Below the pieces are notes generated by a model that saw nothing but the letters and a program-made list of their open reading frames with translations, was not told the origin of the DNA and made no database searches. A stretch of 64,000 nucleotides of DNA from Roseomonas sp. (GTDB lineage: Bacteria; Pseudomonadota; Alphaproteobacteria; Acetobacterales; Acetobacteraceae): the NCBI GenBank assembly GCA_020249925.1, contig JADCER010000016.1:1-64000 (forward strand). The letters run 5' to 3'. Shown here piece after piece: positions 6,601 to 62,773 of this stretch. The position numbers were made by a program, and so were the translations under genes. The stretch's first letter is position 1. Every line of letters begins with the position of its first letter.

Positions 6601-6652
6601 CGGCCAGGGCGGGCAGGAAGCGCTGATCGGCGGGGATCGTGAAAACGCGCAA
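3617..6652 (-). CDS. addB: AddB, nuclease subunit of AddAB
   Basis: Partner of AddA in double-strand break resection. The protein is 1011 aa. The N-terminal stretch TLLLPTRRAARALREAF is typical of alphaproteobacterial AddB, and the C-terminal PD-(D/E)XK nuclease motif ILDYKTG lies near residue 885. The start is a TTG at 6652; no better ATG or GTG preserves the conserved N-terminus FTIPADQRFLPAL. It sits 10 bp after the murU stop and overlaps addA by 4 bp, in the common alphaproteobacterial order tsaE-amgK-murU-addB-addA. The start codon is the only uncertain point. Confidence 0.94.
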   Translation of the reverse strand: MRVFTIPADQRFLPALAEGLLAQTPRDDPAALATYTLLLPTRRAARALREAFLTAAGGRALLLPRMRALPGLSVEEADELALPALLDLPPAVAPLTRQAVLSRIVLGIPRRFGGPLGAEQAWLLAGELATLFDEIAFEEADLDLIETADPLDFAASWLARLDGLVPDKLAVHWQITTTLLQAVVRDWNGWLQNQRLMDLGLARVRALIAQRRALEAAPPREKLIAAGIGAGGTIPAATALLRCIANLPNGALVLQGMAEPITPSLAEAIRRAPSHPFAGQLKLLADLGVEPNAPRPWTSTDHHGAPADRAVMLARSLRPAEGLDIWTERDAPRWQAALAGISRLQAADAQQEAAAIALLLREAMEIPGKRAALITPDRDLARRVAAELARHGITADDSAGAPLADAPAAAFLRLIARMVADGFAPAALLAVLKHPLCSAGMERGAWLDAVRVLERKCLRGPRPAVGLAGLRAALPAGDIALLGLVDALQSALGDFAALPPSPARPPADLLALHLAAAEALAATPELPGGLRLYAGEEGEALARHLAALAEALVEVPPIAPAEWPGAFDAMLAGPIAPPFRARRDAAAHPRIAILGLLEARLQHFDRVILGALEENIWPQATEPGPWMSRPMRARFGLPAPEARIGRVAADFFHAAAQAGELVLSSARKRGGAPSVPTRWLTRLETFLKGQGEIKITASDAAGWAAALDEPEGEAMPCKRAAYSPPVEVRPRRLSVSDATQLIADPYAFYAKRILRLQALDDLDADIGTREYGTLVHHAMRFFLTGLGTGWPGIADARALWARACAEALKKESVHPGVLAFWGPRMARMGDFVIAEEEKLRAQNGLLRCLTEHEGRVALALAGGDVEILAKADRLDELAGGGWRILDYKTGQVPGASQVIAGAAPQLALEAMILEAGGYPTINADAKAAALVYWKLSGGEKPGDAVDLGATTKDGRLWAELARIRITALAERMLLSDAPFESRPHPARGTPGDDYDHLARVAEWASGDGDEA

Positions 6653-6662
6653 GGCGGGCGCT

Positions 6663-55241: not shown

Positions 55242-56027
55242 ATGGAACCCGCCACCACCGCCGCCGATTGGTCAGCCCTGCTCGCTTTGCGCGATGGCGC
55301 CGGCGCGGCCTTGCCGGATGGCCCGCTCGCCGCGCTGTTCGGCCCGGTGCTGGCGCCGCCCGCCGCACCGGATGGCTGCCGGGTGATCGGGCGGCTCGCG
55401 CAAACGCTGGATGGCCGTATCGCCACTGCCGCCGGGTCAAGCCAATGGATCGGCGGCCCGGGCGATATCCTGCACACGCATCGGCTGCGCGCCCTTTGCC
55501 ATGCCGTGGTGGTCGGTGCGGGTACGGTGCGCCATGACAATCCGCGCCTCACCACCCGCGAAGTGCCGGGGCCGGACCCGCTCCGCGTGGTGCTGGATAC
55601 GGACCGCAAACTCTCCACCGATTACGGCATTTTCCAGGGCAGGCCGCCAACCTTGTTGGTCTGCGCCGCCGATGCCGGTGGGGCTGAGCATCATGGCCAG
55701 GCCCAGGTGCTGCGCCTGCCGCGCGTTGCTGGCGGGGGTCTCGCCATCCCACCCTTGCTCGCCGCACTCAAGGCGCGCGGGGCAACGCGCATTTTTGTTG
55801 AAGGCGGTGGGCTCACCGTCTCGCGCTTTCTGGCGGCTGGGTGTCTTGATCGGCTGCATGTCACGGTGGCGCCCGTGCTGCTCGGTTCCGGCATCCCGGC
55901 TTTCACTCTGCCGGAAGTGGCACGCATCGCCGATGGGCTGCGCTTTACTTGGCGCGTGCATGATATCGCGCCCGATATCCTGATTGATGCCGCGCTGGAT
56001 CGCGCCAAGCCCGGGGGGCAAGCATGA
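55242..56027 (+). CDS. RibD C-terminal-domain reductase, standalone
   Basis: 261-aa dihydrofolate-reductase-fold enzyme of the RibD_C type without the deaminase domain. IGRLAQTLDGRIATAAG and AVVVGAGTVRHDNPRLTTR are the NADPH and substrate regions, with ATRIFVEGGGLTVSRFL and the C-terminal HVTVAPVLLGSG. RibD_C enzymes reduce the ribose of a ribosylaminopyrimidine; here the gene leads a pterin-type cluster, so its substrate may be a pyrimidine or pterin other than the riboflavin intermediate. Overlaps the dehydrogenase gene (ATGA). Confidence 0.85.
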   Translation: MEPATTAADWSALLALRDGAGAALPDGPLAALFGPVLAPPAAPDGCRVIGRLAQTLDGRIATAAGSSQWIGGPGDILHTHRLRALCHAVVVGAGTVRHDNPRLTTREVPGPDPLRVVLDTDRKLSTDYGIFQGRPPTLLVCAADAGGAEHHGQAQVLRLPRVAGGGLAIPPLLAALKARGATRIFVEGGGLTVSRFLAAGCLDRLHVTVAPVLLGSGIPAFTLPEVARIADGLRFTWRVHDIAPDILIDAALDRAKPGGQA

Positions 56028-57007
56028 CCAAAGCGCGCGCCTTATGGACCATTGCACCCGGTGTCGCCGAAATCTGCCCTGAGACCCTGCCCGCCCGCGC
56101 CCCGGATCAGGTGCTGGCGCGCATGCTGGCATCGGGCATTTCACGTGGAACAGAAAGGCTGGTGCTGGCAGGCAAGGTGCCGGAGAACCAATGGGGCGTG
56201 ATGCGCTGCCCCTTGCAGGCCGGCGATTTCCCCTTCCCGGTGAAGTATGGCTACAGCGGCGTGGCCCGTGTGATTGAGGGCCCCGCCGATCTGCAGGCGC
56301 GGCGCGTGTTTTGCCTGCACCCGCATCAGGATATCTTCCTTGCCCCTGCGTCCATGTGCATCCCCATCCCGGATGCGGTGCCCGATACCCGTGCCGTGCT
56401 CGGCGCCAATATGGAAACCGCGCTCAATATCCTTTGGGATGCGCGACCCCTGCCCGGAGAGCGCGCGCTCGTGATCGGCGCGGGCGTGGTTGGGCTGCTG
56501 GTCGCCTATTTGCTCGCGCGTATTCCGGCCATGGCGGTGACGATCATTGACCCCGATGCATCACGCCGCGCCACTGCGGAACAGCTCGGCGTCACTTTCG
56601 CCGCCCCGGAAGCCGCACCGGCGGAGCAGGAACTGATCATCCATGCCAGCGCCAATCCCGCCGGGCTGCGCCAAGCCTTGCGATGCGCGGCGTTTGAAGC
56701 GCGGATCATCGAAGCCTCCTGGTTTGGCGCGCAGGAAGTGGCGCTGCCATTGGGCGAGGCATTCCATTCCCGCCGCCTGCGCCTGATTTCAAGCCAGGTC
56801 GGAGCTGTGGCCCCGGCCATGCGCGCCCGGCGCAGCTTTGGTGAGCGCATGGCGTTGGCGCTTGGCCTGCTGGCGGACCCGGCCCTGGAAGCACTGATCG
56901 GTCCCGCGACCCCGTTTGAGAACTTGCCGCAAGCCATGCCCGGCTTGCTCAATCCCGCCCCCGGCACGCCCCCGCCGCTTTGCCCCCTTGTCACCTATGG
57001 TGCATGA
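56024..57007 (+). CDS. Medium-chain dehydrogenase, ADH-like without zinc ligands
   Basis: 327-aa MDR-superfamily protein. The N-terminal segment SGISRGTERLVLAGK stands where catalytic-zinc ADHs have their first Cys, and YGYSGVARV follows; GTE-L is reminiscent of BchC-like dehydrogenases. The Rossmann motif VIGAGVVGLLVAYLLA is clear. No structural-zinc four-Cys lobe is present. It is expected to oxidise or reduce a side-chain hydroxyl of a small heterocycle. Coupled to the RibD_C gene and 30 bp before the PTPS homologue. Confidence 0.8.
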   Translation: MTKARALWTIAPGVAEICPETLPARAPDQVLARMLASGISRGTERLVLAGKVPENQWGVMRCPLQAGDFPFPVKYGYSGVARVIEGPADLQARRVFCLHPHQDIFLAPASMCIPIPDAVPDTRAVLGANMETALNILWDARPLPGERALVIGAGVVGLLVAYLLARIPAMAVTIIDPDASRRATAEQLGVTFAAPEAAPAEQELIIHASANPAGLRQALRCAAFEARIIEASWFGAQEVALPLGEAFHSRRLRLISSQVGAVAPAMRARRSFGERMALALGLLADPALEALIGPATPFENLPQAMPGLLNPAPGTPPPLCPLVTYGA

Positions 57008-57037
57008 AGCGCCGAACCGCACAGGATAGACCCCGCC

Positions 57038-57454
57038 ATGTTCAGCCTGACCGTTGTTGATCACGTCATGATCGCCCATTCCTTCCGCGGCGCGGAATTC
57101 GGCCCCGCGCAGCGCCTGCATGGCGCCACCTTCATTGTGGAAGCAGAGTTCCGCGCGCCGAAGCTCGATCCGCTGAACCTGCTGGTGGATATCGCCGCCG
57201 CGAAGGTAGAACTGCGCCACATTTTGGACGGGTTTGACTATCGCAACCTGGATGCGGAACCGATTTTCGCCGGACAAAACACCACGACAGAATATCTGTG
57301 CCTGCATATCCATGGCTGCCTCTCGGCCGCCTTGGCGGAGGGCAAGCTTGGCGCGGGCGGCAAGGCCGTGACGGGGCTTAAGGTGCTGCTGCGCGAAAGC
57401 CATATCGCCTGGGCCGCCTATGAAGCCGCTCCGGGTGAGGCGCCGCCGGCCTGA
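57038..57454 (+). CDS. 6-pyruvoyl/6-carboxy-tetrahydropterin synthase homologue, altered active site
   Basis: 138-aa T-fold protein of the PTPS/QueD family. IAHSFRG gives the first zinc His, and LHGATF stands for the usual CxxxHGH: the catalytic Cys position is Ala and the second His of HGH is Ala. The pterin-anchoring Glu (LLRESHIAWAAY) and NTTTEYLCLHIH segment are conserved. So the fold and pterin pocket are kept, but the chemistry should differ from QueD. No queuosine genes adjoin it. Sits in a cluster with reductase, dehydrogenase, glycosyltransferase and methyltransferase. Confidence 0.82.
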   Translation: MFSLTVVDHVMIAHSFRGAEFGPAQRLHGATFIVEAEFRAPKLDPLNLLVDIAAAKVELRHILDGFDYRNLDAEPIFAGQNTTTEYLCLHIHGCLSAALAEGKLGAGGKAVTGLKVLLRESHIAWAAYEAAPGEAPPA

Positions 57455-57477
57455 GTTGATCGACCACCAGGCCCCGC

Positions 57478-57514
57478 TTGATTGCACTGCATGCAATGAT
57501 TACAATGATTGCAT
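57478..57514 (+). promoter_or_regulatory. Promoter and operator of the FitAB-like module
   Basis: TTGATT (57478-57483) and TACAAT (57501-57506) are 17 bp apart, a good sigma-70 promoter. Overlapping it are half-sites ATTGCA (57481-57486), TGCAAT (57492-57497) and ATTGCA (57508-57513), so ATGCAAT/ATTGCAT forms a 7-bp inverted repeat across the -10 box. This is what an autorepressing ribbon-helix-helix antitoxin would bind. Inferred from layout. Confidence 0.6.
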
Positions 57515-57530
57515 AAGGAAGGGCGCCACC

Positions 57531-57773
57531 ATGGCCAGCATCACCCTCCGCAATCTTGATGAGGAGCTGAAGCGGCGGCTGCGTATCCGCGCCGCCGAAC
57601 ATGGCCGGTCCATGGAAGAAGAAGCACGCGATATCCTCCGCCAGGCCATGAGCCGCCCTGCCCCCGCACATAACCTGGGCGAGGCGATCCATCGCCGCTT
57701 CGCCGCACTCGGCGGCGTTGAACTGGAATTGCCGGAGCGAGAGGCCATGCCGGCACCGCCGCGCCTCGATTGA
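57531..57773 (+). CDS. FitA-type Arc/ribbon-helix-helix antitoxin
   Basis: 80-aa DNA-binding antitoxin. MASITLRNLDEELKRRLRIR is the beta strand and first helix of the Arc fold, and AAEHGRSMEEEARDILRQAM the second helix, as in FitA and plasmid-stability StbC proteins. The C-terminal ELELPEREAMPAPPR would wrap the toxin. ATG at 57531 has AGGAAGG upstream; the longer frame is an artefact. Seven bases precede the PIN toxin gene. Module lies inside the pterin-type cluster. Confidence 0.88.
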   Translation: MASITLRNLDEELKRRLRIRAAEHGRSMEEEARDILRQAMSRPAPAHNLGEAIHRRFAALGGVELELPEREAMPAPPRLD

Positions 57774-57780
57774 AGCGGGC

Positions 57781-58224
57781 ATGATCCTGCTGGATACGAA
57801 TGTGGTTTCCGAACTCATGCGCCCCGCCCCGGCCGAAGCGGTGCTGGCCTGGTTCGCCGCGCAGGACGCTGCCGATTTGTATCTGAGTGCGATTGGGGAG
57901 GCGGAATTGCGCCGTAGTGCCGCCATGCTTCCCGCCGGCAAGCGGCGTGCCCAATTGATGGCCGCGATAGATGCCATGATCACTGAGGATTTCGCCGGCC
58001 GCATCCTGCCTTTTGATGGCGCCGCCGCCCAAGCCTTCGTGCTGGTGTTTCTGGAACGTCGCGCTGCGGGCCGCCCGATCAGCTTCGCCGATGGCCAAAT
58101 TGCCGCCACCGCACGAGCCCAAGGTGCCGCCATCGCGACACGCAATACCGTCGATTTTGCCGGTTGCGGCCTTGCGGTGATAGACCCATGGGCACATCAG
58201 CAAGGTTCACGCAACACCCCATGA
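57781..58224 (+). CDS. FitB/VapC-type PIN-domain toxin
   Basis: 147-aa PIN ribonuclease. The metal-binding acids are visible: Asp5 in LLDTNVVSEL, Glu in IGEAELRRSA, Asp in SFADGQIAATARAQG and the terminal RNTVDFAGCGLAVIDPW. It would cleave RNA when freed from its antitoxin. ATG at 57781. The last codons overlap the start of the glycosyltransferase gene by 4 bp (ATGA), so the toxin gene is coupled to the host cluster downstream, unusual for a simple insertion. Confidence 0.88.
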   Translation: MILLDTNVVSELMRPAPAEAVLAWFAAQDAADLYLSAIGEAELRRSAAMLPAGKRRAQLMAAIDAMITEDFAGRILPFDGAAAQAFVLVFLERRAAGRPISFADGQIAATARAQGAAIATRNTVDFAGCGLAVIDPWAHQQGSRNTP

Positions 58225-59267
58225 CCGGCGGCATCCACCTTATCGTCCCCGCGCCCTTCAGCGCGATTTCCGGCGGCTATATCTATGATCGCCGCATGGT
58301 CGAAGGGCTGCGCGCGCTGGGGCAGGAAGTGCACGTGGTGGAATTGGCCGGGCGCCATCCCTTCCCGGATGAAAGCGCGACTGAAGCGGCGCGCGCCGCA
58401 CTCGCCGCCATTCCCGCCGGCGCGCGGATTGTGATTGATGGGCTGGGTCTGCCCGCCTTTTTCCCCTTCGCCGATGAATTGACGCGCCGCGGCGCCACGG
58501 CGCTGATCCATCACCCAACCGCGCTTGAACCCGGTGCCGCGGAAGGTCAGCGCGAGGCCTTGAAGGCCGCCGAACGTGTGTTGTTCAGCGCTTGTGTGCG
58601 CGTCATCACCACCTCCACCCCCACCGCGCGGGATTTGCCGGAAGGTTTCGGCGTGGACCCCGCGCGCATCAGCGCAATTGAACCAGGCACTGATGCCGCG
58701 GCACGCGCGGTGGGTTCCGCCGGCCCTGGCTGCGCCATTCTGAGTGTTGGCATGCTCGTACCGCGCAAGGGGCATGATGTGCTGCTGCGCGCACTCGCGC
58801 GGCTCACGGATCTTGAATGGTCACTCGCCATCGCCGGTGATGCCACGCGTGATCCTGTGCATGCCGATGGGCTGCGCGCGCTGGCCGCCGAGCTTGGCAT
58901 TGCGCAACGCGTGCGCTTCTTGGGGGCGCTGCCCGATGCCGCCTTGGAAGCGGAATATGCGCGCGCTGATCTTTTCGCCCTCGCCACGCGTTATGAAGGC
59001 TATGGCATGGCGGCGGCTGAAGCGATGGCGCGCGGCCTGCCGATGGCGATCACAGCTGGCGGCGCGATTGCCGAAATTGTGCCGGAAGATGCCGCCGTGG
59101 TTGCGGCGGTGGATGACCACAACGCGCTGTCACGTGCCATGCGCCGACCGATTTTCGATACGGGCTTGCGTGCGGCGATGGCCGAAGCCTCCTGGCGCGC
59201 GGGCCAGGCCTTGCCGCGCTGGCCTGACCGCGCCGCCGCTTTCCTGAAAGCTCTTGATCATGGCTGA
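58221..59267 (+). CDS. GT4-type glycosyltransferase of the pterin-like cluster
   Basis: 348-aa GT-B transferase. The N-terminal domain binds the acceptor (PAPFSAISGGYIYDRRMVEG). The donor site shows ILSVGMLVPRKGHDVLLRAL and the E-x7-E region RYEGYGMAAAEAMARGLPM. ATG at 58221 overlaps the toxin stop; the gene overlaps the methyltransferase by 8 bp. In this setting it may attach a sugar to a pterin-like product, comparable in principle to cyanobacterial pterin glucosides. Confidence 0.83.
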   Translation: MTGGIHLIVPAPFSAISGGYIYDRRMVEGLRALGQEVHVVELAGRHPFPDESATEAARAALAAIPAGARIVIDGLGLPAFFPFADELTRRGATALIHHPTALEPGAAEGQREALKAAERVLFSACVRVITTSTPTARDLPEGFGVDPARISAIEPGTDAAARAVGSAGPGCAILSVGMLVPRKGHDVLLRALARLTDLEWSLAIAGDATRDPVHADGLRALAAELGIAQRVRFLGALPDAALEAEYARADLFALATRYEGYGMAAAEAMARGLPMAITAGGAIAEIVPEDAAVVAAVDDHNALSRAMRRPIFDTGLRAAMAEASWRAGQALPRWPDRAAAFLKALDHG

Positions 59268-60135
59268 AAGCTTTGATGGTGATTGGCTCGATCTGCGTGA
59301 GCCTTACGACGCCGCAGCACGCAATCCTGAATTGGCCGCGATGCTCGCGGCATGCCTGCCCGCAAGGCCGCGCCTGCTTGATCTTGGCGCGGGCACCGGC
59401 AGCCTGCTCCGCTGGCTTGGCCATTTCATTGACCGCGCGCAAAGCTGGACCTTGGTGGATAGCGATGCCGAATTGATCTCCCGCGCTTTTGACACCATCG
59501 CCGAACGGGCTGAGGCCGTGGATTGGGCCGTGACGCAACCAGGGCGTAGTGCGATGTTGGTCCATGCGCCGCATGGCGCCTGGCGCATTGAAGCGATCCT
59601 GGCTGATCTTGCCGCGGCGCCGGCCAATCTACCCTTGGAACGCGTGGATGCGGTGGTCAGCACGGCGTTGTGTGATCTGGTTTCGCGCGGTTGGGTGGAA
59701 GCCATGGCCGCCGCCTGCGCCGCACGACGCCTGCCCTTCTACGCCGCGCTGAACGTGACAGGGCGCGAACGCTTCAGCCCGCCCCATTCCGCCGATGCGC
59801 TGGTCGCGCGCGGCTTTCGCCGTGATCAGGCGCGCGACAAGGGTTTTGGCGGCGCATCGCTCGGGCCACAGGCACCGGCTGTGATGGCGGAAGCCTTTGC
59901 CGCACATGGCTATGCCATTCATCGCGCGCCGAGTGATTGGGTGGTGGATCGCCGCGCCCGCGCCTTTACCCGCGCCATTGCCGATGGCCATGGCATGGCC
60001 GCACTCGGCTGGGAAAGGCGCGGTGCGGAAGCCATTTTGGATTGGCTTGAAACGCGGCGCGATCAAGCCGATGCCGGGCAGCTTGCCGTGCGCATCGGCC
60101 ATCAGGATTTCCTCGCACTTCCTCCTGCAAGGTAG
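59260..60135 (+). CDS. Class I SAM-dependent methyltransferase-like protein
   Basis: 291-aa Rossmann methyltransferase: motif I LLDLGAGTGSLLRWLG near residues 46-61, and acidic SWTLVDSDAEL for SAM ribose. VDAVVSTALCDLVS is motif IV-like. Starts with ATG overlapping the glycosyltransferase stop by 8 bp and ends 6 bp before otnK. The tail (residues about 190-291) is family-specific. Substrate unknown; co-occurrence suggests the same heterocycle or its sugar. Confidence 0.8.
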   Translation: MAESFDGDWLDLREPYDAAARNPELAAMLAACLPARPRLLDLGAGTGSLLRWLGHFIDRAQSWTLVDSDAELISRAFDTIAERAEAVDWAVTQPGRSAMLVHAPHGAWRIEAILADLAAAPANLPLERVDAVVSTALCDLVSRGWVEAMAAACAARRLPFYAALNVTGRERFSPPHSADALVARGFRRDQARDKGFGGASLGPQAPAVMAEAFAAHGYAIHRAPSDWVVDRRARAFTRAIADGHGMAALGWERRGAEAILDWLETRRDQADAGQLAVRIGHQDFLALPPAR

Positions 60136-60141
60136 TTTCAC

Positions 60142-61401
60142 ATGCCCCTTTTGCTTGGCTGCATCGCGGATGATTTCACGGGGGCGACGGACCTCGCGAA
60201 TACGTTGGTCAAAGGCGGCATGAGCGCCGTGCAAGTGATTGGCGTGCCGACCGGGCCGCTGCCGGAAGCCGATGCCGTGATCATTGCGCTGAAATCACGC
60301 ACCGCGCCGGTTGGTGAAGCGGTGGCGCAATCACTCGCCGCCTGTGATGCGCTGCTGGCCGCAGGTGCCAAACAGATTTTCTGGAAATATTGCTCGACCT
60401 TTGACAGCACCGATCAGGGCAATATCGGCCCGGTCGCGGATGCGCTGCTGAAGCGCCTGGGTTCGGGCTTTGCGGTGGCTTGCCCGGCCTTTCCGACCAA
60501 TGGACGTACGATCTACCTCGGCCATCTTTTTGTTGGCAATGCGTTGCTGAATGAAAGCGGCATGGAAAACCATCCGCTGACGCCGATGACGGATGCCAAT
60601 CTGGTGCGCGTGCTGGGCCGGCAGACGGATGGCGCGGTGGGGTTGGTGCCCTTCACCACCGTCGAACAAGGCGCGGCTGCCACGCGGCAAGCCATGATGC
60701 GTCTGGCCGAACAGGGCCGGCGCTATGCGATTGTGGATGCCGTGACCGATCAGCATTTGCTCGCGATTGGTGAAGCCGCGGCGCAGCACGCGCTGATCAC
60801 GGGCGGTTCCGGCGTGGCGATGGGCCTGCCCGAGAATTTCCGCCGCGCCGGGCTGCTGCAAGCGCGCGGCGATGCCGCCAGCCTGCCGCCCATGCAGGGC
60901 ATGGCGGCAGTGGTGGCGGGGTCCTGTTCGCGGGCGACACTTGGGCAAATCGGCCTCGCGCGGGATCACGTGCCGGTGCTGGAATTGGATGCGCTGGCCA
61001 CACCTGATGCAGCGGCACTTGCTTCGCAGGCCTTGGAATGGGTGGCGGGCAAATTGGCCGCTGATCGCCCGGTGGTGATTGCCGCCAGCGCGCCGCCGGA
61101 AAAGGTTGCCGCATTGCAAGCAAAGCTTGGCCGCGATGCCGCCGGCGCCTTGATCGAAGCCGCCATGGCCGCGATTGCCGAAGGGCTGGTCGCGCGCGGT
61201 GTGGGGCGCTTGGTCGTGGCAGGTGGCGAGACCTCCGGGGCCGTGGTGCAGCGCCTGGGTGTCACGGCGCTCCGCATCGGTCCCGAGATTGATCCAGGCG
61301 TGCCCTGGACTTTCGCCGAGCCACGCGGGCTGCATCTGGCGCTCAAATCCGGCAATTTCGGTGCGCGTGATTTCTTCCTGAAGGCATTCGATCATGGATG
61401 A
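60142..61401 (+). CDS. otnK: OtnK, 3-oxo-tetronate (four-carbon acid sugar) kinase
   Basis: 419-aa DUF1537-family kinase. CIADDFTGATDLANTLVKGG at the N-terminus binds substrate, KYCSTFDSTDQGNIGPV is the conserved loop, and the C-terminal ATP-binding VVAGGETSGAVVQRLG is intact. It phosphorylates 3-oxo-tetronates during degradation of four-carbon acid sugars. Overlaps otnC by 8 bp, the standard partner. No dehydrogenase or OtnI isomerase is adjacent. Confidence 0.91.
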   Translation: MPLLLGCIADDFTGATDLANTLVKGGMSAVQVIGVPTGPLPEADAVIIALKSRTAPVGEAVAQSLAACDALLAAGAKQIFWKYCSTFDSTDQGNIGPVADALLKRLGSGFAVACPAFPTNGRTIYLGHLFVGNALLNESGMENHPLTPMTDANLVRVLGRQTDGAVGLVPFTTVEQGAAATRQAMMRLAEQGRRYAIVDAVTDQHLLAIGEAAAQHALITGGSGVAMGLPENFRRAGLLQARGDAASLPPMQGMAAVVAGSCSRATLGQIGLARDHVPVLELDALATPDAAALASQALEWVAGKLAADRPVVIAASAPPEKVAALQAKLGRDAAGALIEAAMAAIAEGLVARGVGRLVVAGGETSGAVVQRLGVTALRIGPEIDPGVPWTFAEPRGLHLALKSGNFGARDFFLKAFDHG

Positions 61402-62026
61402 GGCTGCGCTGCGCGCGCAGCTTGCCGCGCTCGGCGCCTCGCTTTTTGCGCGCGGCTATTCGGTGGGAACTGCGGGTAATATCAGCGTGCGCCTGCCCGA
61501 TGGGTTTCTGATGACGCCGACCAATTCCTGCCTTGGCCGGCTTGATCCCGCGCGGATATCGAAGCTCGCGCCGGATTTTTCGCATGTTGCGGGTGACAAG
61601 CCATCCAAGGAAGTCTTCATGCATCGCGCAGTGCTGCTGGCGCGGCCTGATGCGGGGGCGGTGGTGCATTTGCATTCGACCCACGCCACCGCCATCGCCT
61701 GCCTTGCCGAACCGGGTGAGGTCGCGCCCATCCCGCCGCTCACACCCTATTTCGTGATGCGTGTCGGGCGGCTTTTGCCGGTGATCCGCTATTATCGCCC
61801 CGGCGACGGCGCGATGGAAAACGACATCCACGAAGCGGCAAAGGGCGCGAAGGCCGTGCTGTTGGCCAATCACGGCCCCGTCGTTTCTGGCCGCACCCTG
61901 GAAGATACCGTGCATGCGGCAGAGGAATTGGAAGAAGCCGCGCGCCTTGCGCTGCTGCTACGCGGCGCTGGCGCGCGCAGCCTGACGCCCGCGCAGGTTG
62001 ATGACCTGCTGAACACCTTCGGCTGA
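61394..62026 (+). CDS. otnC: OtnC, 3-oxo-tetronate 4-phosphate decarboxylase
   Basis: 210-aa class II aldolase/adducin-fold enzyme. GTAGNISVRLPDGF is the phosphate loop, PSKEVFMHRAV contains the catalytic acid, VVHLHSTHATAIA and LLANHGPVVSG carry zinc-binding histidines. It decarboxylates the OtnK product, giving DHAP. ATG overlaps the otnK stop by 8 bp. The DUF4406 gene begins 3 bp after its stop. Confidence 0.91.
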   Translation: MDEAALRAQLAALGASLFARGYSVGTAGNISVRLPDGFLMTPTNSCLGRLDPARISKLAPDFSHVAGDKPSKEVFMHRAVLLARPDAGAVVHLHSTHATAIACLAEPGEVAPIPPLTPYFVMRVGRLLPVIRYYRPGDGAMENDIHEAAKGAKAVLLANHGPVVSGRTLEDTVHAAEELEEAARLALLLRGAGARSLTPAQVDDLLNTFG

Positions 62027-62029
62027 CCC

Positions 62030-62365
62030 ATGTGGATCATGATCGCAGCCCCCTATACCAGCGGCGGTGCCGATGCTGCGCTCCGCGCCGCGCGCCTTGC
62101 TGAGATGAACCAGGCCGCACTCGCGATCCTCAGGCTTGGTCATGTGCCGGTGATTGGCGTGAATATGGCGCTCCCCATCATCGCCGCGGCCGATGGCGAT
62201 GTGTTTGACGAAGTGATGATGCCGCTCTCACTCGCCTTGGCTGAACGCTGCGATGCCGTGCTGCGGCTGGGTGGCCCAAGCCAGGGCGCGGATCAGGAAG
62301 TGGCGCGCTTCAGGCAGGCGGGAAAGCCCGTATTCCACACCCTGGCGGAAATCCCGCGAGGGTAG
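62030..62365 (+). CDS. DUF4406-type protein
   Basis: 111-aa alpha/beta protein beginning MWIMIAAPYTSGGADAALRA, the DUF4406 pattern related to nucleoside 2-deoxyribosyltransferases. DEVMMPLSLALAERCDAVLRL and a final GADQEVARFRQAGKPVFHTL follow. Function unknown; the fold suggests a nucleoside or sugar-phosphate ligand. It is the last gene of the run starting at 55.24 kb. Its last codons form one copy of a 26-bp direct repeat. Confidence 0.75.
   Translation: MWIMIAAPYTSGGADAALRAARLAEMNQAALAILRLGHVPVIGVNMALPIIAAADGDVFDEVMMPLSLALAERCDAVLRLGGPSQGADQEVARFRQAGKPVFHTLAEIPRG
62339..62364. repeat. Direct repeat copy 1 flanking the Doc module
   Basis: 26 bp, core ACCCTGGCGGAAATCCCG, covering the last codons and stop of the DUF4406 gene. 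It differs from copy 2 (63186-63211) at a single base (G for C at 62358). The two copies are 847 bp apart and enclose the doc toxin, its antitoxin and the operator. Confidence 0.85.
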
Positions 62366-62371
62366 CGGACA

Positions 62372-62773
62372 TCACCGCCCCTTCTCTCCCGTCTGATTAT
62401 CCACACTCACCGCATGCTCACGCAACCATGCCGCAAGCCGGTCATGGCTGAAGGACCTCCCCTCCAGATTGTCGATGATAAAACGATAAAGCGTCATGGA
62501 ATCCGGCCCGATCGCGTAGCCATTGATCGCGAGAAAGGTGATCATGCAGGCCGCGGCGACACGCTTATTGCCGTCAACAAAGGGATGGTTCATGGCCAGG
62601 CTCTCCCACAGAGCCGTGGCTTCTTCGATCACATCCTCGTAATAGCCTGTCTGTGGGCGATAAAGCGCGGCCTCAAGCAGCCCAAAATCACGCACGCCAT
62701 CGGCGCCGCCATAGCGTTCGATCTGATCGTGATGGATGGCCAAGACCTCAATGATGGTCAGGTAATCCGTCAT
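62372..62773 (-). CDS. doc: Doc-type Fic-domain toxin
   Basis: 133-aa death-on-curing protein. The catalytic loop HPFVDGNKRVAAACMITFL (residues about 63-81) carries the His and the GNKR of Doc, which phosphorylates EF-Tu rather than AMPylating. EVLAIHHDQIERYGG at the N-terminus is also typical. ATG overlaps the antitoxin stop by 4 bp. It faces the DUF4406 gene tail to tail, with 6 bp between. Confidence 0.92.
   Translation of the reverse strand: MTDYLTIIEVLAIHHDQIERYGGADGVRDFGLLEAALYRPQTGYYEDVIEEATALWESLAMNHPFVDGNKRVAAACMITFLAINGYAIGPDSMTLYRFIIDNLEGRSFSHDRLAAWLREHAVSVDNQTGEKGR

What the first reader, a model, noticed from the sequence alone, without database searches (positions are those of the whole stretch)
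55242..60135. Uncharacterised gene cluster for a glycosylated, methylated pterin-like molecule
Seen: five enzyme genes in one direction, coupled or nearly so: RibD_C reductase, zinc-ligand-less MDR dehydrogenase, PTPS homologue, GT4 glycosyltransferase, SAM methyltransferase. Known: RibD_C and PTPS act on GTP-derived pyrimidines and pterins; pterin glycosides exist in cyanobacteria. Inference: the set builds a modified pterin or deazapterin-like small molecule with a sugar and a methyl group. I recall similar groupings in other alphaproteobacteria without an assigned product.
Basis: partly seen in the sequence, partly recalled or inferred. Interest (0 to 1): 0.75.

Follow-up and report, generated by a model that had tools for sequence, protein, structure and literature searches.

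The report
Conserved unknown pterin-type pathway genes
Five neighbouring genes here belong to a widespread bacterial pathway, found together in several phyla, that probably turns a vitamin B2 precursor into a sugar-bearing, methylated pterin-like compound whose identity is unknown.

Summary
In 26 evenly drawn genomes of the phylum that carry the PTPS gene (the window's own left out), MDR is a neighbour in 26, GT4 in 25, methyltransferase in 24, RibD_C in 22. A profile of this MDR subfamily hits the same 27 of 398 genomes that carry the PTPS gene.

The PTPS is the published PTPS-IV subfamily (motif FGPAQ), not QueD: 107 of 107 distinct rows lack the Cys and one Zn-binding His but keep pterin-holding Thr/Glu residues. 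RibD_C lacks the deaminase domain, so the substrate probably keeps its 2-amino group.

Elsewhere the cluster often adds GTP cyclohydrolase II, a creatininase-family protein, a CDP-alcohol phosphotransferase and a flippase-like protein; some copies lie on plasmids.

Best reading: an uncharacterised pathway diverting the GTP cyclohydrolase II product into a methylated, glycosylated pterin or ribityl-pyrimidine, in some lineages probably membrane-linked. The product is unproven; part of the neighbourhood was reported in 2017. Unexplained: this genome has queuosine genes including queC, but no other PTPS/QueD was found.

The parts
55242..56027 (+). RibD_C reductase without a deaminase domain; likely reduces the ribosyl chain of the GTP cyclohydrolase II product
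   Evidence: PF01872 1.3e-39 and no deaminase domain at E 0.01; closest PDB sequence 6p8c, named a 2,5-diamino-6-ribosylamino-pyrimidinone 5'-phosphate reductase, 3.9e-23; motifs LDG, D-x-P-x-L-x-x-R, EGG conserved in 78 or 79 of 79 distinct rows
56024..57007 (+). Zinc-less MDR dehydrogenase (SRGTE subfamily); likely oxidises or reduces the polyol chain or ring
   Evidence: no zinc-ligand pattern; nearest solved sequences include polyol dehydrogenases; AlphaFold pLDDT 93.6, Foldseek TM 0.68-0.81 to MDR enzymes in the 50 rows listed; same 27 of 398 genomes as PTPS-IV
57038..57454 (+). PTPS-IV subfamily protein (FGPAQ motif)
   Evidence: 56% identity to the SCO6650/PDB 3d7j stretch; Ala at the Cys and third Zn-His positions, and T82, T84, E85, E120 kept, in 107 of 107 distinct rows
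57531..57773 (+). FitA-like antitoxin, inserted between PTPS and GT4; not taken as part of the pathway
   Evidence: PF22513 2.7e-20; the same insertion in L002, L005, L006 of the 80 loci
57781..58224 (+). PIN-domain toxin of the inserted pair; not taken as part of the pathway
   Evidence: PF01850 3e-11
58221..59267 (+). GT4 glycosyltransferase; adds a sugar (donor unknown)
   Evidence: PF00534 4.1e-28; family profile hits MshA, PimB, PimA and, more weakly, the tetrahydrobiopterin glucosyltransferase 5ze7
59260..60135 (+). SAM-dependent methyltransferase; adds a methyl group (position unknown)
   Evidence: Conserved D-x-G-x-G motif; AlphaFold pLDDT 96.7; Foldseek neighbours are SAM methyltransferases; found in 25 of the 27 PTPS-IV genomes
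60142..61401 (+). 3-oxo-tetronate kinase (OtnK), 6 bp downstream; often neighbours the cluster in Acetobacteraceae-type loci; role in the pathway doubtful
   Evidence: NF043035 610 bits, cut-off 350; in 27 of 36 Acetobacteraceae-type loci
61394..62026 (+). 3-oxo-tetronate 4-phosphate decarboxylase (OtnC), overlaps OtnK; role in the pathway doubtful
   Evidence: NF043034 279.6 bits, cut-off 250; 26 of 36 loci

Best explanation
The genes are the core of an uncharacterised biosynthetic pathway. GTP cyclohydrolase II (encoded in the cluster in many bacteria, elsewhere in this genome) supplies 2,5-diamino-6-ribosylamino-4(3H)-pyrimidinone 5'-phosphate. RibD_C, having no deaminase partner, reduces the ribosyl chain to ribityl while the 2-amino group stays. 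The zinc-less MDR then changes the redox state of the chain (one concrete option: oxidising the 2'-hydroxyl, so that the 5-amino group closes a dihydropterin ring). PTPS-IV, which has lost the zinc/cysteine chemistry but keeps the pterin pocket, binds the 2-amino-4-oxo ring and guides ring closure or side-chain change. The methyltransferase adds a methyl group and GT4 a sugar. In Actinomycetota and several proteobacterial groups a CDP-alcohol phosphotransferase and a flippase-like membrane protein probably tie the product to, or move it across, the membrane. Shown: gene identities, co-conservation, lost and kept residues, cluster make-up. Inferred: every substrate, the order of steps, the product.
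For: Neighbourhood in 26 evenly drawn genomes other than the window's, within 9 kb of PTPS: MDR 26, GT4 25, MT 24, RibD_C 22, CDP-alcohol phosphotransferase 12, GCH II 11, LPG-TM protein 11, creatininase 6. In the 50 of 80 genome-contig loci with at least 6 kb on each side: MDR 49, GT4 48, RibD_C 44, MT 43. MDR profile at E<=1e-60 hits 27 of 398 genomes, the same 27 that have PTPS-IV at E<=1e-20; 11 of the 27 gave no row to the profile. MT: 25 of the 27 plus one weaker outside hit. Protein distance matrices of the five families correlate, rho 0.78-0.90, against at most 0.28 in 200 permutations per pair (61 loci). PTPS-IV residues; RibD_C motifs and no deaminase domain; polyol-dehydrogenase-type relatives of the MDR; pterin glucosyltransferase among GT4 profile hits; intact CDP-alcohol phosphotransferase motif in 11 rows (motif recalled). 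A creatininase-family enzyme of Sinorhizobium deformylates the GCH II intermediate (PMC9478397: outline with abstract, and passages, read). Clusters on plasmids.
Against: No product or enzyme assay for this pathway was found. The set is not always whole: in 36 Acetobacteraceae-type loci MT is missing in 7, RibD_C in 2, MDR in 1 and GT4 in 1; L044 keeps only RibD_C, MDR and PTPS, and L056 keeps PTPS and GT4 without MDR and RibD_C. Where GCH II is linked in Proteobacteria, Gemmatimonadota and one Micromonospora it has the ordinary Tyr, which should need no separate formamidase, so the creatininase role there is unclear. This genome has FolE, so a second route to an ordinary dihydropterin would be redundant. 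No LPG-TM relative was found in this genome (an empty answer without a positive control) and only a 29-bit CDP-alcohol hit, so the membrane part does not seem to apply here. PTPS-IV also occurs without the cluster on two Streptomyces plasmids. A 2016 review states, as unpublished, that PTPS-IV serves archaeal F420 synthesis (PMC5041015, passages read). A queC-bearing queuosine operon exists in this genome with no other PTPS/QueD found.
Confidence: 0.57

Rival explanations
1. PTPS-IV is this organism's queuosine enzyme (a QueD substitute) and the cluster is a side association.
For: The genome holds tgt, queF and queC with a transporter-like gene and genes read by eye as queA and queG, but PF01242 finds only one PTPS-family gene, the one in the window.
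Against: The QueD motif CxxxHGH is absent: Ala at both the Cys and the third Zn-His in 107 of 107 distinct PTPS-IV rows; QueD model 35.6 bits against a cut-off of 89; co-inherited with MDR, GT4, MT and RibD_C, while none of the recurrent neighbour families that I annotated was a que gene (que genes were not searched for separately in the neighbourhoods).
Confidence: 0.08
2. An accessory or alternative riboflavin/flavin route.
For: GCH II, RibD_C and a creatininase-family protein in the wider clusters; a creatininase-family formamidase serves riboflavin synthesis in Sinorhizobium (PMC9478397).
Against: Separate rib genes with a 367-aa RibD-like gene lie on contig 28; no deaminase domain in this RibD_C; no riboflavin or lumazine synthase among the recurrent neighbour families annotated.
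Confidence: 0.08
3. The compound is a deazaflavin/F420-type molecule, following the unpublished claim that PTPS-IV acts in F420 synthesis.
For: Statement in PMC5041015 (passage read); GCH II and RibD-type reduction are also upstream of F420 (recalled).
Against: No FO synthase among the recurrent neighbour families annotated; the F420 core route as I recall it uses the deaminated ribityl-uracil, for which a RibD_C without deaminase would be an odd choice. FO synthase was not searched for genome-wide.
Confidence: 0.08
4. A surface or envelope glycolipid locus in which the pterin-like genes make a minor head-group or signal.
For: CDP-alcohol phosphotransferase, LPG-TM protein, membrane GT2/MdoH-type glycosyltransferase, sulfatase and FkbM methyltransferase next to the core in several lineages.
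Against: Neither the CDP-alcohol nor the LPG-TM gene is near the core in the 36 Acetobacteraceae-type loci counted, and the make-up of these extra genes varies between lineages more than the core does.
Confidence: 0.18

Closest known systems
PTPS-IV subfamily of COG0720 (FGPAQ motif; SCO6650, PDB 3d7j)
   Same: FGPAQ motif; 56% identity to the SCO6650 stretch; neighbourhood with PF00925 and PF01872 as printed in PMC5445326 (section 19 read)
   Different: Section 19 of that paper names no MDR, GT4, MT, creatininase, CDP-alcohol phosphotransferase or LPG-TM protein for PTPS-IV; its supplement was not read
QueD / PTPS-I
   Same: PTPS family and the pterin-holding Glu/Thr residues (roles recalled)
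   Different: Lacks the Cys and third Zn-His; below the QueD cut-off
RibD reductase domain / archaeal-type reductase (TIGR01508)
   Same: Reductase motifs, best PDB relative 6p8c
   Different: No deaminase; 95 bits against a cut-off of 186 for the archaeal-type model
Tetrahydrobiopterin glucosyltransferase BGluT (PDB 5ze7)
   Same: GT4-type homologue in the profile hit list (47 bits); the short name is recalled
   Different: MshA, PimB and PimA score higher; donor and acceptor unknown
BrbF formamidase of Sinorhizobium (creatininase family)
   Same: The cluster-linked creatininase-family protein of other bacteria would fit this reaction
   Different: Not in the window; five creatininase homologues elsewhere in this genome; reaction untested and no direct comparison with BrbF was made

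Membership tests
PTPS-IV | FGPAQ signature | tested here: met
   F21-G22-P23-A24-Q25 in 107 of 107 distinct rows; motif from PMC5445326
QueD (PTPS-I) | CxxxHGH motif | tested here: not met
   Ala for Cys and HGA for HGH in 107 of 107; the 3 control rows L109-L111 have C and H
PTPS (all) | Pterin-holding Thr/Glu residues | tested here: met
   T82, T84, E85 and E120 in 107 of 107; the role of these residues is recalled
RibD (riboflavin) | N-terminal deaminase domain | tested here: not met
   Only RibD_C found in the 261-aa protein at E 0.01
RibD_C reductases | Conserved reductase motifs | tested here: met
   D57, G58, D99, L103, E187, G188, G189 in 79 of 79 distinct rows, P101 and R106 in 78; motif roles recalled
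BchC | NCBIfam equivalog cut-off | tested here: not met
   47.6 bits against 291.25
Zinc MDR alcohol dehydrogenases | Catalytic zinc ligands | tested here: not met
   Ser40 and Tyr77 in 101 of 102 distinct rows at the recalled ligand sites; only Cys320 is conserved above two thirds, 92 of 102; sites judged by motif, not by a structural superposition of ligands
Pterin glycosyltransferase | Activity on a pterin | not testable with these tools
   Only distant GT4 homology to 5ze7
FAPy-releasing GTP cyclohydrolase II (SCO6655 type), in related clusters | Met in place of the Tyr of ordinary RibA | tested here: inconclusive
   Of 22 aligned rows: Met 2 and His 8 (actinobacteria), Tyr 12, two of them the same gene of this genome; L072, L078, L081 (a Micromonospora) and L102, not in that alignment, show Tyr. 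Meaning of Met recalled from Spoonamore and co-workers, not read

The most novel reading that the evidence does not exclude
A phylum-crossing family of membrane-linked pterin glycoconjugates: a methylated, glycosylated 2-amino-4-oxopteridine made from the GTP cyclohydrolase II product by RibD_C plus a zinc-less polyol dehydrogenase, a way to a pterin that bypasses GTP cyclohydrolase I, with a metal-free PTPS as binding catalyst and with a CDP-alcohol phosphotransferase attaching it to lipid in many bacteria.
Probability: 0.15. Interest if true: 0.88.

Novelty: new variant of a known kind. Interest (0 to 1): 0.62.

Why it matters
In the ten annotated plasmid records read, all ten PTPS-IV genes are labelled 6-carboxytetrahydropterin synthase, eight of them with a queuosine GO term, although residues of that motif are gone. 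The gene sits in 27 of 398 sampled genomes of the phylum and 93 of 200 of the family, in four named phyla (Pseudomonadota, Actinomycetota, Gemmatimonadota, Acidobacteriota), and on plasmids. An unidentified pterin or modified pyrimidine made by this many bacteria could be a new cofactor, redox carrier, pigment or envelope component. The co-conserved set makes the question directly testable by deletion and metabolomics in culturable strains.

Tried and rejected
Considered and rejected: QueD function (motif lost); riboflavin duplication (separate rib genes); BchC (score far below cut-off). The FitAB pair was treated as an insertion because close relatives lack it. Led nowhere: papers on SCO6650 (0 hits); SCO6655 (1 hit, listing only); the gene-set term searches (0 hits); 'pyruvoyltetrahydropterin synthase homolog' with Streptomyces coelicolor (0); FAPy with GTP cyclohydrolase and Streptomyces coelicolor (0); SCO6648, 6649 and 6651-6654 (1 listing, not read). 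Structure models of MDR and MT gave only general folds. Recurrent ORF families include antisense shadow frames of known genes; these were not counted, and only part of those families was annotated.

Limits of the counts. The HMMs were built from the hits themselves, own-genome homologues included, so their bit scores rank but do not prove orthology; in particular the 399 bits of the unlinked creatininase at contig 4:211940 are inflated, its BLAST identity to the linked one of L078 being 40%. The neighbour counts use those HMMs, a score above 100 and 9 kb; 30 of the 80 genome-contig loci were left out of the stricter count for short flanks. The residue counts count 26 genomes twice (short and long loci of the same gene); one search recounts without these, and its numbers are used here.


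Full report
What is there. RibD_C (55242-56027) overlaps MDR (56024-57007); PTPS (57038-57454) follows after 30 bp; GT4 (58221-59267) overlaps MT (59260-60135). Downstream follow a 3-oxo-tetronate kinase and decarboxylase, both above NCBIfam cut-offs, and a DUF1937 gene.

What each protein is. The PTPS has only two PDB sequence relatives at E 0.01, the first being SCO6650 of Streptomyces coelicolor, 3.6e-42. Its FGPAQ motif places it in PTPS-IV, the subfamily that PMC5445326 (section 19 read) found as a 561-sequence cluster with PF00925 and PF01872 in its neighbourhood. In 107 distinct rows (window, 80 genome-contig loci, 26 phylum genomes) all have Ala at the Cys position and Ala at the third Zn-binding His position, while FGPAQ, His14, His28, Asp51, Thr82, Thr84, Glu85 and Glu120 are invariant; three weaker phylum hits used as QueD-like controls have Cys and His at the two lost positions. 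I recall, but did not read, that the SCO6650 structure paper reports no zinc, no catalytic triad and no PTPS activity. The RibD_C has no deaminase domain but keeps the reductase motifs in 78 or 79 of 79 distinct rows. The MDR shows SRGTE and GY motifs in at least 99 of 102 distinct rows where I recall zinc ligands in zinc MDR enzymes; its only Cys conserved above two thirds is Cys320, 92 of 102. Its profile finds RspB, L-iditol, sorbitol, xylitol and galactitol-1-phosphate dehydrogenases among 29 solved sequences, and its confident model resembles MDR enzymes at TM 0.68-0.81. The GT4 profile finds MshA, PimB and PimA among the best hits, and the tetrahydrobiopterin glucosyltransferase 5ze7 at 47 bits. 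The MT has weak sequence relatives and a confident model whose neighbours are SAM methyltransferases.

Co-conservation. Of these 80, MDR is near PTPS in 76, GT4 in 74, MT in 63 and RibD_C in 63; in the 50 with at least 6 kb on each side the numbers are 49, 48, 43 and 44. A less biased sample is the 398 genomes drawn evenly from the phylum: 27, the window's genome included, have PTPS-IV at E<=1e-20 (105 have any match at E<=0.001). Around the 26 others, MDR is present in 26, GT4 in 25, MT in 24, RibD_C in 22. The MDR profile at E<=1e-60 hits 27 of 398 genomes, the identical set. Rows from 16 of those 27 genomes built the profile, so the fair part is the 11 others plus the absence from the remaining 371; only up to five candidates per genome were scored. 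The MT profile, built from the same loci, hits 25 of the 27 and one further genome weakly. In the window's family 93 of 200 genomes carry PTPS-IV. Distances of the five protein families correlate at rho 0.78-0.90 over 61 loci, permutations reaching at most 0.28; shared ancestry of the organisms contributes to this. An MDR tree of 56 rows groups nine Actinomycetota together (100/99) and follows phyla broadly.

Incomplete sets. In 36 Acetobacteraceae-type loci with good flanks, MT is missing in 7, RibD_C in 2, MDR in 1 and GT4 in 1. L044 keeps only RibD_C, MDR and PTPS; L056 keeps PTPS and GT4 with the two tetronate genes. Among the 26 phylum genomes, RibD_C is not near in 4 (L124, L125, L144, L145), MT in 2 (L137, L138) and GT4 in 1 (L142). 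Whether the missing genes lie elsewhere was not searched, except that the MT profile found none in the genomes of L137 and L138.

The wider system. In Actinomycetota, in Acidobacteriota and Gemmatimonadota loci and in many genomes of another class of the phylum, the core is joined in varying combinations by a CDP-alcohol phosphotransferase with an intact catalytic motif, an LPG_synthase_TM protein, GTP cyclohydrolase II and a creatininase-family protein. In 11 Actinomycetota loci: LPG-TM 11, CDP-alcohol 10, GCH II 9, creatininase 8, RibD_C 7. Some alphaproteobacteria carry a membrane GT2 or MdoH-type gene, some with an FkbM methyltransferase, upstream of MDR. Of 20 plasmid records with a match, I read 11 regions: one has no annotation, 8 of the other 10 show the MDR-PTPS pair with further cluster genes and 2 Streptomyces plasmids show PTPS alone. 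One cluster, with the CDP-alcohol and LPG-TM genes, lies on a mobilizable 59-kb Microbacterium plasmid. One plasmid cluster has no annotated GT4.

This genome. It holds two RibD_C genes (the window's and a RibD-like gene on contig 28), two GCH II genes (one on contig 24 with the ordinary Tyr and zinc motif, and one on contig 28 in a RibBA-like protein whose second half lacks that motif by eye), FolE, five creatininase homologues, and no LPG-TM hit. So GCH II, and perhaps a creatininase, would act from elsewhere. It also holds tgt, queF and queC together with genes I read as queA and queG, yet PF01242 finds only the window's PTPS. The genome is in 28 contigs and 99.62% complete; QueE was not searched. 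This stays unexplained and is the best argument for the queuosine rival.

Mechanism. The substrate is most likely the GCH II product. The absence of a deaminase and the conserved Glu that holds the 2-amino group in PTPS proteins (recalled) point to an intermediate that keeps that group, unlike riboflavin. Reduction of ribosyl to ribityl by RibD_C, followed by oxidation at C2' by a polyol-type dehydrogenase, would leave a ketone positioned for attack by the 5-amino group, giving a dihydropterin; this is chemistry on paper, not data, and FolE already offers an ordinary route to dihydroneopterin, which speaks against that exact form. A ribityl-pyrimidine or 8-ribityl-pterin product is as likely. 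In some actinobacteria GCH II has Met (2 rows) or His (8 rows) for Tyr, while a Micromonospora has Tyr; I recall that the Met type stops at the formyl intermediate, which a creatininase-family formamidase like that of PMC9478397 (abstract and passages read) would then deformylate. In proteobacteria the Tyr is kept although the creatininase is sometimes linked, so that step is uncertain.

Novelty. PTPS-IV and part of its neighbourhood are in print (PMC5445326). Ten searches of the paper library turned up no description of the whole set or its product in what I saw, but subscription papers, among them those on SCO6650 and SCO6655 that I recall, are mostly not held, and supplements were not read.

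Noticed in passing
window 57531-58224: A FitAB-type toxin-antitoxin pair sits inside the biosynthetic operon, overlapping the GT4 start; of the six closest loci three have it and three lack it.
   Followed up: partly
L151 7322-12250 (own genome, contig 4): Queuosine genes including tgt, queF and queC with a transporter-like gene, but no QueD other than the window's PTPS-IV was found in the genome.
   Followed up: partly
window 60142-62365: 3-oxo-tetronate kinase and decarboxylase plus a DUF1937 gene are nearly coupled to the cluster; kinase and decarboxylase neighbour it in 27 and 26 of 36 Acetobacteraceae-type loci.
   Followed up: partly
window 62372-62773, - strand: ORF that looks like a Fic/Doc family protein (HPFxDGNKR motif, read by eye); a second possible toxin-type gene close by.
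   Followed up: no
L158 12001-12426 and L165 12001-12399: PTPS-IV genes standing alone on Streptomyces linear plasmids, with cupin and regulator genes in the region, without the rest of the cluster.
   Followed up: no
L156 15026-15565, L161 13011-13544, L157 14528-15085: A cytochrome b gene lies beside RibD_C in three plasmid clusters, hinting at a redox role.
   Followed up: no
L162 9834-10754 and L164 13997-14887: A ribokinase or PfkB-type sugar kinase neighbours the cluster in two Rhodobacterales plasmids.
   Followed up: no
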